A stretch of 64,000 bases of DNA, from contig OX453272.1 of assembly GCA_949710005.1 (NCBI GenBank), forward strand, positions 37,932,992 through 37,996,991, in the 5' to 3' direction. Made by a program: the position numbers and the translations under genes. Positions 56,915 through 64,000 of this stretch are shown here, in pieces. Below the pieces are notes generated by a model. It did no database searches, was not told where the DNA came from, and was given only the letters and a program-made list of their open reading frames with translations. The DNA is from Ricordea florida (lineage: Eukaryota > Cnidaria > Anthozoa > Corallimorpharia > Ricordeidae). Within the stretch, counting starts at the first letter, position 1; each line of letters begins with the position of its first letter.

Positions 56915-57595
56915 AGTGCACAGATGATGAATAATGGTAGGGTAGTGGGATGTGGCTTGAAATGACAACGTCAAAATGTAATAAGGGTAAGTTGAAACCA
57001 CATATATGCGCACTGAGGAGACAGTAGTAGAAGGGACAAAACCCTGTTGCTACCAAAAAAAGGATGAAATCAAGTTGAGCTCAAAAGCCAGCAGCCATGG
57101 ACAGCTGTTTCGGCCTTGTTAGGCCTCACCAGCATGGCACAGTTAGCACATGAGCTGTGGGTTCCCACATTGTGAATGTCAAGATGATGAAGAATGGTAG
57201 GGTTGTGGGATGTGGCTTAAAATGACAACGTCAAAATGTAATAAGGGTAAGTTGAAGCCAGACATATGTGCACTGAGGCGACAGTGGTAGAAGGGATAAA
57301 ACCCTGTTGCTACCAAAAAAAAGATGAAAAAATTGAGCTCAAAAGCCAACAGCCATGAACAGCTCTTTCGGCTTTGTTAGGCTTCAACAGCATGGGACAG
57401 CTAGCACATGAGCTGTGGGTTCCCACATTATGAATGTCAAGATGATGAAAAATGGTAACGTTGTGGGATGTGGCTTGAAATGACAACGTCAAAATGTAAT
57501 AAGGGTAAATTGAAGCCACGTTGTCATTTCAAGCCACATCCCACAACCCTACCATTTTTCATCATCTTGACATTCATAACGTGGGAATATTTGTT
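56915..57595. repeat. 258-260-bp tandem repeat, about 2.3 units, ending in an inverted piece
   Basis: TGTGGCTTGAAATGACAACG recurs at 56951, 57211 and 57469. The units share CCTGTTGCTACCAAAAAA, AGCTCAAAAGCCA, CACATGAGCTGTGGGTTCCC. From about 57517 the sequence turns round (ACGTTGTCATTTCAAGCCAC ... CTTGACATTCATAACGTGGG), giving a foldback end. Unit 1 carries the hammerhead-like motif at 57095-57137. Confidence 0.85.
57095..57137 (-). ncRNA. Hammerhead-like ribozyme in the tandem repeat
   Basis: On the minus strand: stem I CCATG (57137-57133) pairs with CATGG (57100-57096). Core CTGGTGA has one change (A6 to G). Stem II is GGCCT/AGGCC with an AACA loop. GAAA is intact, the palindrome ACAGCTGT forms a minimal stem III, and GTC is at the cleavage position. 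Tandem monomers of a few hundred bases with hammerheads are typical of satellite-like and retrozyme RNAs. The copy in unit 2 (about 57354-57397) has lost stem II, the core and GTC. Confidence 0.55.
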
Positions 57596-58569: not shown

Positions 58570-58590
58570 CATAGCCAGAAATTTCGGACA
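58570..58590 (+). repeat. CATAGCC-family terminal repeat next to the transposase-like gene
   Basis: CATAGCCAGAAATTTCGGAC matches the ends of the element at 15206-16160 at 19 of 20 positions. As in the other copies it is followed within 70 bp by an ATG in the context AAAATGGC (58637, MAYENYKGLYEKRWNYG). A matching inward end is not present before 64000, so the element, if real, extends past the window. Confidence 0.6.
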
Positions 58591-59374
58591 TTTGAGCCCG
58601 CATGACAGCAGTGGCTTTTCCCAATCGTTTTAAAAATGGCGTACGAAAATTACAAAGGTTTATATGAGAAGCGATGGAATTACGGAAAATACAAAACCAA
58701 TTACTGTGGTTTTTCAGTTTGCCAAAATCGAACATTATTCAACGACATTTCAGCTCCATTTAAGTGAAAAAAAATTATACGAAAACCAATTCCATACCTT
58801 TCCCTCGGAACGATGTCAATTTGCAACTTCAGATCCAGTCAAGGCCTTACAAATCACTGACAAAAGAACCGAAGATGACATATTTGACAGGAAATAGCAA
58901 AAAAGCAAATGACGCTTCATAATTTGCCAAAATCGAATCATAAAATAAAGATAAAACCCTATTTGGAAAATAAGAAGTCTGACCTTCGGCTTGTAAATTT
59001 ACCTTTCCTTTCGGCTGTTAAAAACCGTACACAATGAAATAAGTCCCGGGAAGAAAAGTCGACATGTCACGCAATTCCAGTTCCGCTCCATGATAAAGAA
59101 AGCAACGAGTTCTCCCTCTTTGCGCCGTGTTCTCGCACGAACACCCTGCAAATTTGGTATCAACATTTTCAGCAAAACCCAGACTTTTCGAGCCTGCAGT
59201 TTTCTAAGACAGCAGTTTAAAGTTAAACCTGCGATAGTTCTCTAAAGCAGTCGCACGCCTCCGCGCAGGAGCATTCCGCGGGAATTACGCGCGAGAATTA
59301 AATTCCATGTTTACAGTTTCTTGCACATTTTTGCTGGCGTTTAAAACAGTTTCTTTAGTAGCCACAAATTCGCA

Positions 59375-62300
59375 ATGTCTGATGTACTTAGCTCTTACGA
59401 TCGCGAGAGGTATTTCAACTGCGTCGGAATTGATTCAAATCATAGTCTACAATATATAGCAAAACAGGGTATCAACAGTGATGAGATTCTTCTGACAATC
59501 CACGTAACCAATAAATGTTTAAGAAGCTGGTACGAGTTTAAGGAGCAGAACGTTTTTCCAGACTTGAAGTTTATCGATATCGCTAATGCACTGATCGGCG
59601 AAAAGTTTGGGATTTTACTGAGAAGAGACTGCGAAAGAATCGAAAATCATTTCAGGAGGCTTGCGTCTACCGTTAAGAGCCAGTTTGTCGCAAAGAACGG
59701 TAGAAACTATGTGACATTTGGAAACAAGGTCAGAAAGATAGCCATACGTAAGGGGGAAGTGCGAAATATTGTTGAGGCTGAGAAGGAATTAAAAGACCAA
59801 ATAGAACAAAGCAAAATATTGCAAGAGAAAAATGAATATTTGCAATTTGAAACTCAAGGTCTTCAAGGGATAATAGATCAGCTTTGGAAAGACTTACATG
59901 AGGCCCGTGAATTACAAAGTGAAGCAGAAGAGAGAGTGGAGGAACTGTACGCTGATTTAGAAAAGGTTAAGCAGGAGAATTCCCATTTGTTTTAGTATAT
60001 AGAAAAAGTGGAGGAACTTAAGAAATTAGAAAACTCAGGCAAGAAATTTACTGAAGTGCATGAAAAACAACAACAGAGGAAACTGCGCGAATTGAAAACT
60101 AAAGCTGAAAGAGCTTTATGGTTCGCAGAGACTTTTGGTCTTAAGATAACATTCATGGAATGCCAGGACGACAGTGGTAAGACTCACAGCATCACTTACC
60201 AAGGTCAAGGACAAGGAACAAAGTCATTCAAGGAATTATGCAAAGAAGACCAAGATAAAATTAAAGAAATTGTTTACCTAACAGACAAATTCTGCATAGG
60301 AGAAGCAGCATACCATGAGCTCACTTTAGCATCTAGTGGGGATGGTCTACCTCGGTCTTACCTAGTGAGACAAAGTAAGAACCACCTGAATGAGCTGATC
60401 CACATAGCAAGAACCCCCGGAACAGCAGAAGGAGCTCAACTTGACTTTGAGAGGGAACTTCAAAACACAATACGAAAACTGGTCAGTATTATTAGTGATC
60501 TGTAAACCAGGCCAGTCCCTTAACTGGTACAATCAAGGTCATAGCAACAACAAAAATAATGATAATGATGATGATGATTATGATAATGATGATGGTTAAC
60601 ATACAACTGTTGTTTGCCTGTGTTCTTAAAACATCTGCAGAAAATCCAAAATGAATCAGATGCCAAACTTAAAGTAAAGATCAGTGGAGATGGTGCAAGA
60701 ATGTCTAGGATGACAAGTTTTGTGATTATGTCCTACTCAGTTGTGGAGAATGATGATGTAATGTCATCAAAAGGTAAAACATTGTGTAGGGAATAACAAT
60801 TAAACCCAGTGAATTTACTTTTGTTTCATTTATTTATTTATTTTATTTTTTTATAAGGAAATCATACAGTTGCTGTAATTAAGGGTCATGCAAGTTATGA
60901 TCTTCTGAAGACCTCATGTGCTGACCTGTTTAATGCTGTCAACAAGATTGTGAAGGAAGGGAAGGTCACAGTTGATGGGAGAGAGATACCAGTTGAAATG
61001 TTTCTGGGTGGGGACTATAAGGTAAATTATTTACTGCATTAAATGTTTGTACAACTACAAAACTATTGACCATTTCAAAATCCCAGCAGCTATAATAACA
61101 AAACAAAATACAGCAGTGTTGAGTTTGTAATGTCATTAAAATCATTGTTTGTTTTGCAGTTCCTTCTTCTCATACTCGGTATGAAAAGTGCCACCTCTGA
61201 TTATTCATGCCTTTGGTGTACAATTCACAAGAGAGACAGGTAAAAATCTACACCTTCTAACAGTATGCCTGCATGAATTGCTCAGTTACAAAATAACCTC
61301 ACTGTGTTATCTGATCCCAGTATTTATTTTTAACATTATAGGCATGAAATGTCCAAAGCCACAGATTATTACTGGGAAGAACCCCTTGTAAGAACTCTTC
61401 AAACCATGAAGGACCATGCGAAGGATCATAAGTTCTCCTGTGTCCATAAGCCCTTGCTTGAAATCCCCTTAGAAAATGTTGTCCTTGATGAGCTACATTT
61501 GATGCTGAGAGTGACTGGTATGTGTAAGATGCAATTAAATAATGAACTGTCTTGGTATTTTCCTTGGGGACCTAAAAGAGAAAACATTTGTCTTCTAAAT
61601 TAAGGAATAAATACTCTTAAAAGGTTAGAGAGATAACTAACAGGTTGTATAAAAAATTTTATTTTACACAGATGTTTTGACTAACAACTTAGTAGAAGAA
61701 GCCATGGCCTGGGATAAGAAGGAAAGTTTTAACAAGCCCCCTAGCCAGAAAACAAGCCAACATACTGACTCTCTCAAAGCTGCTTTTAACAACTGTGGTG
61801 TGTCATTTAATATATGGGAAAAGAAAAATGCAGACGGAAAGGGCAGTGGTTGTTTTGATTTCACAAGTTTGATGGGTTCTGACAAGAAGATACTTCTGAG
61901 AGAATTGCCACCAAAGTTACATGGTGTATTAAAACCAGAAACCAGAGATGTTGTGATAAAAATCTGGAAGGTAACAGCATTTTGCACTATTATACAGATG
62001 TATGTGTACAAGTTTTTCTTTTAAGAACAAAATGTTTATTGCAATGTAATGTTACTCTGAACAGGACTTTGATGAGCTCTACAAGATGTTTGATGAACAA
62101 AATCTCACTGATGATTATGCTGAAGACTACTTTCAAAAGGTAAATAAACTGCCCAAGTGTAACTATACCTTGGCACATTCTAAAAACTTAAATGGGTAAG
62201 GGGAATTATTATGGAAACAATCATTAATTACAAGAGCTGTAATGTATACTCATAACAAGCTACTGACATGATTAATTTCCCTCCCTATATCCTTGTCAGG

Positions 62301-63163
62301 CAAAGGCATGGGTATCCCTTTTTACATCTCTTGCAGGAATAAGCATTGGTTATGCCAAGGCAAATGTCACTCCATACATGCATGCAATGGTGTTTCATGT
62401 GCCAAGATTTCTAGCAAAACTTCAAGGGATCAAGAAATTTACAGGGCAGGGTAAGGCAAGTTAATGTAGACTACCTAATGATGTACAAAACTGTGCAATT
62501 TTGAACTGTTTTTCAATAAACTTTTGATATCTTATTGTCCTTTTCCAACGAAAAGAGTGAGTTTTTTTTTTCATTAGTCGCTAAGAAGCTCTGATTTAAC
62601 CGGAGTTCAATAAAAGAACATTCTAAAAATAACACCATGTTCTACTGCCTACTCAGACCATCTCTTGTAACAATAACAGTATTAATGTCAATGGTTTATT
62701 ATATAATAGTTTTAAATGTATTTTATGTTAAAACTAATATGTTTAAAAAACTTACAAAAGATCAATTCTCTAAACAGGGGTGGAAAAAAATAATGATGAT
62801 TGCAGAAGAATACATCTTCAAAAGTCTAACGAGTGGGATGCTGCAAAAGATGTTCTTTTGGTTAGTAAAAGACTTGAGCTACTGAGCGAATGTGAGCGAA
62901 CCCCAAGAAACTACAAGAAAAGGAATGCAGAGTACTGGGAAACCACCATAAAAGAAAAACATGCCTGTCAAAGAGCAGCCATTAAAGATTTATCCAGTTC
63001 AGCCAATCGTGATAGTACTAATGAGTATGATGTAGCTAACATGACTCCAGAAAATATTAAAGCTCAACTTGCAGAGATGGGAATTAGAACACGGCTTAGA
63101 AATGTAAAAAGATTGCAAGAACTACTTGAAAATGCTTTAGAGTTAGCCTCTCAAGCTGATTAA
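59375..63163 (+). CDS. Transposase-like protein with RAG1-type DDE and zinc-ligand layout
   Basis: Nine exons join in phase: 59375-60481, 60641-60773, 60858-61021, 61160-61239, 61342-61517, 61672-61970, 62065-62139, 62300-62450, 62778-63163, giving 856 codons. A single TAG interrupts at codon 207 (59993). Residues about 140-220 are a coiled coil. Candidate catalytic residues are D386 (KISGDGAR), D466 (FLGGDYK) and E731 (GVEKNND). C485/C488 (CLWC) and H706/H711 (HAMVFH) would bind zinc. [10 protein letters not shown] (D544) lies between. The D466-C485 (19), H706-H711 (5) and H711-E731 (20) distances equal those of RAG1. The C-terminus ([19 protein letters not shown]) looks like a SAP DNA-binding motif. 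I know the family only as an unnamed multicopy one in cnidarians and sponges. DNA cut-and-paste is the likely reaction, by inference. Confidence 0.75.
60558..60595. repeat. (GAT)n-like microsatellite in intron 1
   Basis: GATAATGATGATGATGATTA-type run in the first intron of the transposase-like gene. Confidence 0.9.
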
Positions 63164-63624
63164 TAAGTCACAAATAGAACACAAAGGAAATCACTGATGT
63201 GAGGGAGTTAAGGATTTGACATTAAAGAAATTGATAGTTTCAAGCAGACACTTTGTAATAATTTCTTTTCACTGTGATTAGTTGATTCTTGGCAATGTGC
63301 CCCTGATCAAATACAAATGTATCCTGACCAGGATACAATTCAGCAGTTGTTGACCTCTCAGTTGTTTGTTTTGCCATGATTGTTGAAGGGAAAATCTAAA
63401 TATATAACAAAGCACTTAATGTGTGGTCCCTTGGGGAACTAGTTAGAGGGAAAACAAAACTAACTGTTTCCCTTAGGACCATACATTAAGTGTATATTGT
63501 TTTATACCTCATTCTACAAAGAGTTGTGCCACATGCAAACTGGTTTGTCAGGGGTTGCAAGATATTCTGCAATCACTCCTTCAAAAGTTTTAGTTACCAA
63601 ATAATATTGTAGAAAGGAAATCTT
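63164..63624. other. Intergenic stretch between converging genes
   Basis: 460 bp between the stops of two converging frames. It contains the hairpin at 63414-63491 and nothing else notable. Confidence 0.5.
63414..63491. terminator. ~32-bp-arm hairpin between converging genes
   Basis: ACTTAATGTGTGGTCCC ... AACTAGTTAG (63414-63445) is mirrored by CTAACTGTTTC ... GGACCATACATTAAGT (63460-63491), with a purine-rich loop. It could act on transcripts from both sides or be a small foldback insertion. The latter seems as likely. Confidence 0.45.
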
Positions 63625-64000
63625 CTACAACACATTTTCTAAGTTACATGGCTTCTTTGCAATTTCAATGCACAACTTCTCTAGGGGGAACCTAGGGGCC
63701 TTGCAAAGTAGCCCATCTTTGTTAAAATAATGAGCTGGGTACCATGACAACACTGGCTTTATTTTAATAGGGAAGTCAACAGCAAATCCCTCTCCATGTT
63801 CGTTCAAAAAGTACCACCAGTGTTGAGAAAGGTACTTAAACTTTGTAAAGTCATCTTTGTAACATAAAAAATGACCTCGATGTTCTGAAGGAGTACATTT
63901 GTTATAAGAAATAAAGCGCCAAATATCGAGATTCATGTCAATGTAAAATGGTGAAAGAGAGGAACTTTTCAGCCCAGTTAACACCCCAGCAGCAAATCGC
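63625..64000 (-). CDS. Unknown gene entering from the right edge, minus strand
   Basis: An open frame of at least 119 codons runs from the window edge to a stop at 63625. It contains PFYIDMNLDIWRFISYNKC, QHWWYFLNEHGEGFAVDFPI, KPVLSWYPAHYFNKDGLLCK. Rich in Trp, Tyr and Phe, it looks like a folded domain rather than chance. There is no upstream stop before the edge, so the start lies outside. I do not recognise it. It converges on the transposase-like gene, and if the CATAGCC element continues to the right this may be its second gene. Confidence 0.5.
   Translation of the reverse strand, partial: RFAAGVLTGLKSSSLSPFYIDMNLDIWRFISYNKCTPSEHRGHFLCYKDDFTKFKYLSQHWWYFLNEHGEGFAVDFPIKIKPVLSWYPAHYFNKDGLLCKAPRFPLEKLCIEIAKKPCNLENVL

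What the first reader, a model, noticed from the sequence alone, without database searches (positions are those of the whole stretch)
59375..63163. Unnamed transposase-like gene whose catalytic and zinc-ligand spacing matches RAG1
The nine-exon reconstruction gives D386, D466 and E731 with C485-x2-C488 and H706-x4-H711 in between. In RAG1 (mouse numbering, from memory: D600, D708, C727, C730, H937, H942, E962) the second Asp to first Cys is 19, His to His is 5 and last His to Glu is 20. All three distances are identical here. The flanking patterns also agree: GDG near the first Asp, D-x-L-H between, and a hydrophobic segment after HxxxxH. The family is multicopy and unnamed to my knowledge. 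It could be a relative of the RAG/Transib lineage or another C2H2-insert DDE group with the same fold, and it has an unusual coiled-coil N-terminus and SAP-like C-terminus.
Basis: partly seen in the sequence, partly recalled or inferred. Interest (0 to 1): 0.9.

Follow-up and report, generated by a model that had tools for sequence, protein, structure and literature searches.

The report
RAG1-like transposon with chromodomain partner gene
This stretch is a decayed copy of a jumping gene, found in corals and sea anemones among other animals, whose enzyme is predicted to have the fold of the antibody-gene recombinase RAG1 and is paired tail-to-tail with a chromatin-reader gene, much as RAG1 is paired with RAG2.

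Summary

The gene sits in a DNA transposon of about 6.1 kb starting at 58570; its 3' end, outside the window, was read from a 99% identical copy. A second, convergent gene encodes a chromodomain protein (last exon 63625-64000). In the host genome 45 of 53 transposase places scored have this convergent partner; none has it otherwise. Both ends begin CATR, not CAC. Of 14 complete elements, 13 show no abutting repeat of 2 bp or more; the 14th gained one base.

It is a RAG1-fold lineage that fails the Transib/RAGL tests of ends and duplication. No tree was built and Repbase could not be searched.

The parts
58570..58601 (+). 5' terminal inverted repeat, CATAGCCAGAAATTTCGGACATTTGAGCCCGC; outer boundary of the element
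   Evidence: Similarity to two other genomic copies (L007, L008) stops here and an inverted copy lies 6.08 kb away in L008; 28-base core matched once in the window, 0 expected by shuffles; pattern of that core (two N, one Y) at 9 places in the genome, 8 of them exact, 0 for the reversed control
59375..60481 (+). transposase exon 1: N-terminal domain, long helix / coiled coil, start of the RAG1-like region; contains the in-frame stop 59993-59995
59993..59995 (+). in-frame TAG at residue 207 (this copy is probably inactive)
60641..60773 (+). transposase exon 2, first catalytic Asp D386 in GDG
60858..61021 (+). transposase exon 3, second catalytic Asp D466 in GGDYK
61160..61239 (+). transposase exon 4, zinc-ligand pair C485-x2-C488
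61342..61517 (+). transposase exon 5, conserved DELH motif (D544-H547)
61672..61970 (+). transposase exon 6
62065..62139 (+). transposase exon 7
62300..62450 (+). transposase exon 8, zinc-ligand pair H706-x4-H711
62778..63163 (+). transposase exon 9, catalytic Glu E731 and SAP-like tail
   Evidence: SAP-like tail from relatives
63625..64000 (-). last exon (cut by the window end) of the convergent second gene: unnamed C-terminal domain of the chromodomain protein; chromodomain exons and the 3' terminus lie beyond the window and were read in the 99% identical copy L008
63413..63492 (.). imperfect inverted repeat (27 nt arms, 81% complementary, 26 nt apart) between the two converging genes

Best explanation
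This is a decayed copy of a two-gene cut-and-paste DNA transposon. Gene 1 is a DDE transposase with the RAG1/Transib fold: an RNase H core with D386, D466 and E731 and a zinc site from CxxC plus HxxxxH, preceded by a coiled-coil N-terminus and followed by a SAP-like tail. Gene 2 runs in the opposite direction and ends tail-to-tail with gene 1; it encodes a chromodomain joined to an unnamed conserved domain. The transposase most likely binds the CATRGCCAGAAAT termini as a dimer, cuts the element out by RAG-type chemistry and inserts it with no target-site duplication, or one of a single base. The chromodomain protein most likely is a chromatin-reading partner that steers or regulates insertion, as the PHD finger of RAG2 does for RAG. 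Shown here: fold and residue conservation (by prediction and alignment), the two-gene arrangement, termini, copies and empty sites. Inferred: catalysis, zinc binding, complex formation, histone binding and the hairpin step.
For: Model of P0004 with 59 sequences, mean pLDDT 85.8, core mostly above 90. All 47 Foldseek matches at E <= 0.001 are RAG1, RAG1L or HzTransib. Best Z by family: RAG1 27.6 (447 residues, rmsd 3.7), BbRAG1L 24.1, HzTransib 22.4, P element 12.7, ISCth4 9.9, Hermes 8.9. Family profile against PDB sequences: RAG1 (3jbw) at E 1.6e-5, with the second Asp, CxxC, HxxxxH and Glu in register. Pfam RAG1 matched by 7 of 59 members at E <= 0.1, best 9.7e-5. Residues and spacings conserved. 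Termini: inverted repeat at both ends of C2, C5, C7 and L057 and of 10 copies of another subfamily, where a 19-base core is perfect at 20 of 20 ends. Partner gene: Chromo domain E 1.5e-12 in the C2 copy and 7.3e-8 to 2e-16 in 4 of 4 divergent loci scanned, which I had picked from 6 because a chromodomain-like motif was visible. Pairing: 45 of 53 transposase places have a convergent partner within 6 kb, 0 another arrangement, 8 none; 3 at most in 2000 random placements. From the gene 2 side, 22 of 26 distinct places (30 loci) have a convergent transposase within 1.5 kb. Empty site: 40 of 40 scored paralogues of the C2a target are one base shorter than the joined flanks; in the 6 that I aligned this is a single gap at the junction, and the CATG tips are absent in the 2 alignments printed.
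Against: No activity was measured. This copy has a stop codon and the C2 copy has a 2-base deletion in exon 4. The model is of a homologue (52% identical over the core), not the window product, and its active-site distances were not measured. The window product alone matches neither Pfam RAG1 nor any PDB sequence at E <= 10. No Chapaev, EnSpm, Mirage or Plavaka structure appeared, and to my knowledge (recall) none is in the PDB, so a RAG1 best match cannot tell these lineages apart. The duplication length is not settled: one empty site implies 1 base, another 0. Junction bases agree in 8 of 14 elements, chance about 0.01. With shifted boundaries, short repeats appear in two of ten elements (C14 TAG, C9b ATGAG). 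Only part of the transposase candidates (53 of 692) and gene 2 candidates (150 of 354) were scored, and how many of the 115 gene 2 places are unpaired was not counted. Eight of 53 transposase places lack a partner in that list. A role for the chromodomain protein in transposition is inference.
Confidence: 0.84

Rival explanations
1. It is a lineage of the Chapaev/CMC transposons rather than of RAG/Transib; the RAG1 match reflects the common CMCT ancestry and the lack of Chapaev structures in the PDB.
For: Pfam DUF1280, described as the Chapaev transposase (PMC3985635, passages), matches 3 of 59 members, best 4.3e-5, no weaker than RAG1's best 9.7e-5. CxxC and HxxxxH occur across CMCT, and CMCT ends are mostly 5'-CA..TG-3' (PMC12730594, section 16), as here.
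Against: Chapaev is reported with invariable CAC..GTG ends and generally 3-4 bp duplications (PMC4079192, passages); here the ends are CATR and no duplication of 2 bp or more was established. The only DUF1280 match whose extent I saw (P0086, E 0.041, not among the 59) covers 29 residues. More members match RAG1 (7 against 3 of 59).
Confidence: 0.25
2. It is an ordinary Transib or RAGL (RAG1L-RAG2L) transposon.
For: RAG1 fold; convergent two-gene layout as in RAGL transposons (layout from PMC7204232, passages).
Against: Ends are not CAC and no 5 bp duplication is present. The partner has a chromodomain, and no kelch or PHD match was found in its C-terminal region in the C2 copy or 8 relatives. 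Sequence similarity to RAG1 is marginal: P0097 18.3 bits against a cut-off of 25.
Confidence: 0.05
3. Gene 2 is a passenger or host-derived gene that does nothing for transposition.
For: Non-autonomous copies also carry parts of gene 2 (C5, C7); 8 of 53 transposase places have no partner in the list; no function was tested.
Against: The pair is kept in the same orientation across subfamilies whose gene 2 products are only about 28-35% identical to the one in the window's subfamily, and the chromodomain is kept too.
Confidence: 0.15
4. It is a domesticated host gene.
For: Eight GT-AG introns in this copy.
Against: Terminal repeats, several copies, closely similar intronless copies of other subfamilies and a broken frame here.
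Confidence: 0.03

Closest known systems
RAG1/RAG2 and RAGL (ProtoRAG, TransibSU) transposons
   Same: RAG1 fold with second Asp, CxxC, HxxxxH and Glu in register; two genes in convergent orientation; a chromatin-reader domain in the partner (PHD in RAG2 by recall, chromodomain here)
   Different: Ends CATR rather than CAC; no 5 bp duplication; partner with a chromodomain and an unnamed C-terminal domain; coiled-coil and SAP-like ends; first-to-second Asp spacing 80 against 108 (recalled numbering)
Transib (HzTransib)
   Different: Ends, duplication length and a second gene; no sequence-level match to HzTransib among the 60 of 65 listed
CMCT group (EnSpm, Mirage, Chapaev, Plavaka, ESTA, Lanisha)
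   Same: C(2)C and H(3-4)H between second Asp and Glu; 5'-CA..TG-3' ends
   Different: CMCT duplications are 2-5 bp, here 0-1; I saw no report of a chromodomain partner in the listings of searches
Hermes (hAT) and P element transposases
   Same: RNase H core with DDE chemistry (recall)

Membership tests
RAG/Transib superfamily | RNase H DDE core with zinc site from CxxC and HxxxxH | tested here: met
   By predicted fold, conservation and spacing: (active-site distances in the model and zinc binding not measured)
RAG/Transib superfamily | Termini beginning 5'-CAC (heptamer-like) | tested here: not met
   CATA/CATG ends with few variants; definition from PMC7204232, passages
RAG/Transib superfamily | 5 bp target-site duplication | tested here: not met
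   13 of 14 complete elements have no abutting repeat of 2 bp or more, read from the printed flanks; the 14th, C2a, has TTT on both sides but its empty site shows one base gained; a second empty site fits 0 bp
RAG/Transib superfamily | Score above the Pfam RAG1 cut-off (25 bits) | tested here: not met
   P0097 18.3 bits; 7 of 59 members match at E <= 0.1, best 9.7e-5, their bits not shown; the window product has no RAG1 match listed at E <= 10
RAGL (RAG1L-RAG2L) transposon | Convergently oriented partner gene | tested here: met
   45 of 53 places
RAGL (RAG1L-RAG2L) transposon | Partner is RAG2-like (kelch repeats and PHD) | tested here: not met
   Chromo domain; the last exon has no kelch or PHD match in Pfam in the C2 copy or 8 relatives; its fold search was inconclusive
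Chapaev | CAC..GTG ends and 3-4 bp duplication | tested here: not met
Chapaev | Chapa zinc finger, RING in some | tested here: inconclusive
   No RING listed by Pfam for the window product or 10 relatives; the Chapa domain was not searched; definition from PMC4411706, passages
CMCT group | C(2)C and H(3-4)H between second Asp and Glu | tested here: met
CMCT group | 5'-CA..TG-3' ends in most cases | tested here: met
   (18 of 20 tips CATG)
CMCT group | 2-5 bp duplication | tested here: not met
CMCT group | Placement in a transposase tree | not tested
   No Chapaev, EnSpm or Transib sequences were gathered: the search for PF12940 in the host genome did not complete (last tries)

The most novel reading that the evidence does not exclude
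A second, separate RAG-like two-subunit system: a distinct superfamily of animal transposons, sister to RAG/Transib, in which a RAG1-fold transposase has teamed up with a chromodomain reader instead of the PHD-bearing RAG2, in the same convergent layout, and which inserts with no or a one-base target duplication. The pairing of a RAG1-type enzyme with a chromatin reader would then have arisen at least twice, or be older than RAG2.
Probability: 0.45. Interest if true: 0.92.

Novelty: new variant of a known kind. Interest (0 to 1): 0.82.

Why it matters
RAG1-RAG2 is the only recombinase I know of (recall) in which a RAG1-type enzyme works with a histone-reading partner, and why RAG2 joined is an open question. 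A family with the same predicted enzyme fold, the same convergent layout and a different chromatin reader gives a natural comparison: does a chromatin reader repeatedly improve this enzyme? Several subfamilies in this genome have uninterrupted, closely similar copies, so the question could be tested at the bench. A DDE enzyme of this fold that leaves no or a one-base duplication would also be mechanistically odd, since RAG and Transib leave 5 bp (PMC7204232, passages).

Tried and rejected
Viral contigs and bacterial/archaeal genomes: no relatives confirmed, so no prokaryotic or viral origin was found. Forty whole-genome searches came back as busy and unanswered. Never answered, therefore not done: the RAG1 family PF12940 in the host genome, the relaxed terminus pattern (three mismatches), the L057-type terminus pattern and the C4a flanks. 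No tree with Transib, RAG1L or Chapaev was built.

The idea that CATG is a 4 bp target duplication was rejected: the empty site lacks it, and one subfamily has CATA (CTTA in C2) at the left end and CATG at the right in 3 of 3 complete elements. A 1 bp duplication in all cases was not upheld: junction bases agree in 8 of 14 (6 of 8 copies with perfect tips; chance 0.004) and one empty site fits 0 bp. A search for the fold of the gene 2 C-terminal domain found nothing at E <= 0.001; only one of five models was confident (86.7 against 60 or less), so this is inconclusive. NCBIfam gave nothing useful. A coral MITE paper concerned piggyBac. Matching contig lengths between transposase and gene 2 hits to show linkage in other species gave no match by eye. 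A fifth, divergent copy (C5:18.88M) is broken up and no gene 2 hit was found beside it.

Literature: in the titles and abstract openings listed by searches (20 of 35, 15 of 397, 2 of 2, 20 of 69, 10 of 11, 10 of 22 and 8 of 18 papers) none describes this family. Repbase and bioRxiv are not held, so the family may be in Repbase under some name. Papers seen: PMC12730594 (passages and section 16); PMC7204232, PMC3985635, PMC7642931, PMC4079192, PMC4411706 and PMC2872659 (passages only); PMC3093488 is not held.
Full report
The observation. A search of 5.8 billion proteins with residues 370-856 gave 132 relatives, 120 listed (7994 candidates scored). Named sources are anthozoans (Dendronephthya, Acropora, Paramuricea, Exaiptasia, Nematostella, Pocillopora, Stylophora, Desmophyllum, Actinostola, Oculina), the molluscs Pinctada and Mytilus, the hemichordate Saccoglossus, and one bacterial bin that is probably host contamination; most rows carry no name. 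None of the names shown is a function. In an alignment of the window product with those 120, the three acidic residues and four zinc ligands are nearly invariant (D386 118/119, D466 118/121, C485 120/120, C488 120/120, H706 114/114, H711 113/114, E731 108/109). The spacings 19, 5 and 20 are constant (120/120, 113/114, 107/108).

The element. Of four other genomic places found with part of exon 1, two copies share the sequence up to window 58570 and no further. A copy on contig C2, 99% identical over most of the shared stretch, ends 6,082 bp later in an inverted repeat. A pattern of the 28-base terminus occurs at 9 places in the genome, 8 of them exact, none for the reversed control. Left ends read CATA and right ends CATG in C5 and C7, CTTA and CATG in C2. 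C5 (about 1.1 kb) and C7 (about 2.8 kb) are internally deleted, non-autonomous forms. The C2, C12a and C12b copies are decayed.

The second gene. Between the transposase and the 3' end the C2 copy encodes, on the other strand, a three-exon protein with a Chromo domain (E 1.5e-12) and a C-terminal domain with no Pfam match. Only its last exon lies in the window (63625-64000). That domain has 19 relatives at E <= 0.01. In the host genome gene 2 has 145 matches among 150 scored of 354 candidates. Reading 30 of these loci (26 distinct places), the transposase tail lies within 1.5 kb on the opposite strand, tail-to-tail, at 22 of 26; the exceptions are the two deleted elements, one locus without a hit and one with a hit on the other side. 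From the other direction, a transposase search gave 57 matches (53 candidates scored of 692). Merged into 53 places, 45 have a convergent gene 2 within 6 kb, none has it otherwise, and 8 have none; 2000 random placements gave at most 3 (contigs taken as 30 Mb). The chromodomain was found in 4 of 4 divergent loci scanned, picked from 6 inspected. So the pair has been kept while gene 2 diverged to about 30% identity.

Copies and activity. Several subfamilies have open single frames; nine listed places share an 895-residue frame without stops, and five have 866 or 867 residues without stops. Whether their catalytic residues are intact was not checked copy by copy. Ten complete copies of the 895-residue subfamily have a perfect 19-base terminal core at 20 of 20 ends and CATG tips at 18 of 20. 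This is in keeping with recent movement, though none was shown.

Target sites. In 13 of 14 complete elements (nine of these ten, and C2, C5, C7 and L057) no repeat of 2 bp or more abuts the ends (with shifted boundaries C14 and C9b show TAG and ATGAG). The 14th, C2a, has TTT on both sides, but it sits in an integrase-like repeat: 40 of 40 scored empty paralogues are one base shorter than the joined flanks, and aligned ones lack the CATG tips, so the tips belong to the element and one base is gained. For C9b a 205 of 205 match about 105 kb away implies 0 bp, and 18 of 40 matches run two bases across the junction at equal length. Junction bases agree in 6 of 8 perfect-tip copies and 8 of 14 elements overall (chance 0.004 and 0.01). 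I conclude 0 to 1 bp; the exact rule is open.

How it most likely works. The transposase would bind CATRGCCAGAAAT ends and cut and rejoin DNA with its DDE site, as RAG1 and Transib do (inference from fold and residues). The chromodomain protein would tether or regulate the complex by reading histone methylation (inference from domain and constant pairing).

Place among known kinds. It shares the RAG1 fold, and the convergent layout of RAGL transposons (PMC7204232, passages). It fails their CAC ends, 5 bp duplication and RAG2-like partner. It meets the CMCT motif and CA..TG ends but not the 2-5 bp duplication (PMC12730594, section 16). Chapaev ends and duplications do not fit (PMC4079192, passages), although DUF1280, described as Chapaev (PMC3985635, passages), matches 3 of 59 members weakly. 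Without a tree I rate it a new variant of a known kind. Seven literature searches listed no description, but Repbase was not available.

Noticed in passing
window 63413-63492: An imperfect inverted repeat (27 nt arms, 26 nt apart) lies between the 3' ends of the two converging genes; it could serve as a shared terminator.
   Followed up: no
window 56922-57587: A cluster of direct and inverted repeats up to about 340 bp at 92% identity outside the element (self-matches of L010 914-1579).
   Followed up: no
L008 / window 59724-59976: The C2 copy carries a tandem duplication of roughly 180 bp in transposase exon 1 relative to the window copy.
   Followed up: partly
L057 and one search places: Divergent subfamilies have a transposase in one open frame (866-895 aa) while the window subfamily has eight introns; gene 2 appears to keep separate exons in both.
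   Followed up: partly
P0121-P0137: The gene 2 C-terminal domain is conserved and unnamed, without a Pfam match; no PDB fold match at E <= 0.001 was found.
   Followed up: partly
L038 (C14:12770752) and L033 (C14:12035677): Gene 2 copies without a convergent transposase within 1.5 kb; they may be remnants or solo genes.
   Followed up: no
P0110: A relative filed under a Candidatus Thiodiazotropha bin, probably DNA of the animal host.
   Followed up: no
G000:C2 near 40262034 (C2a target): An integrase-like repeat with at least 40 closely similar copies into which one element has inserted; 'integrase-like' is my reading of its frame, not a search result.
   Followed up: partly
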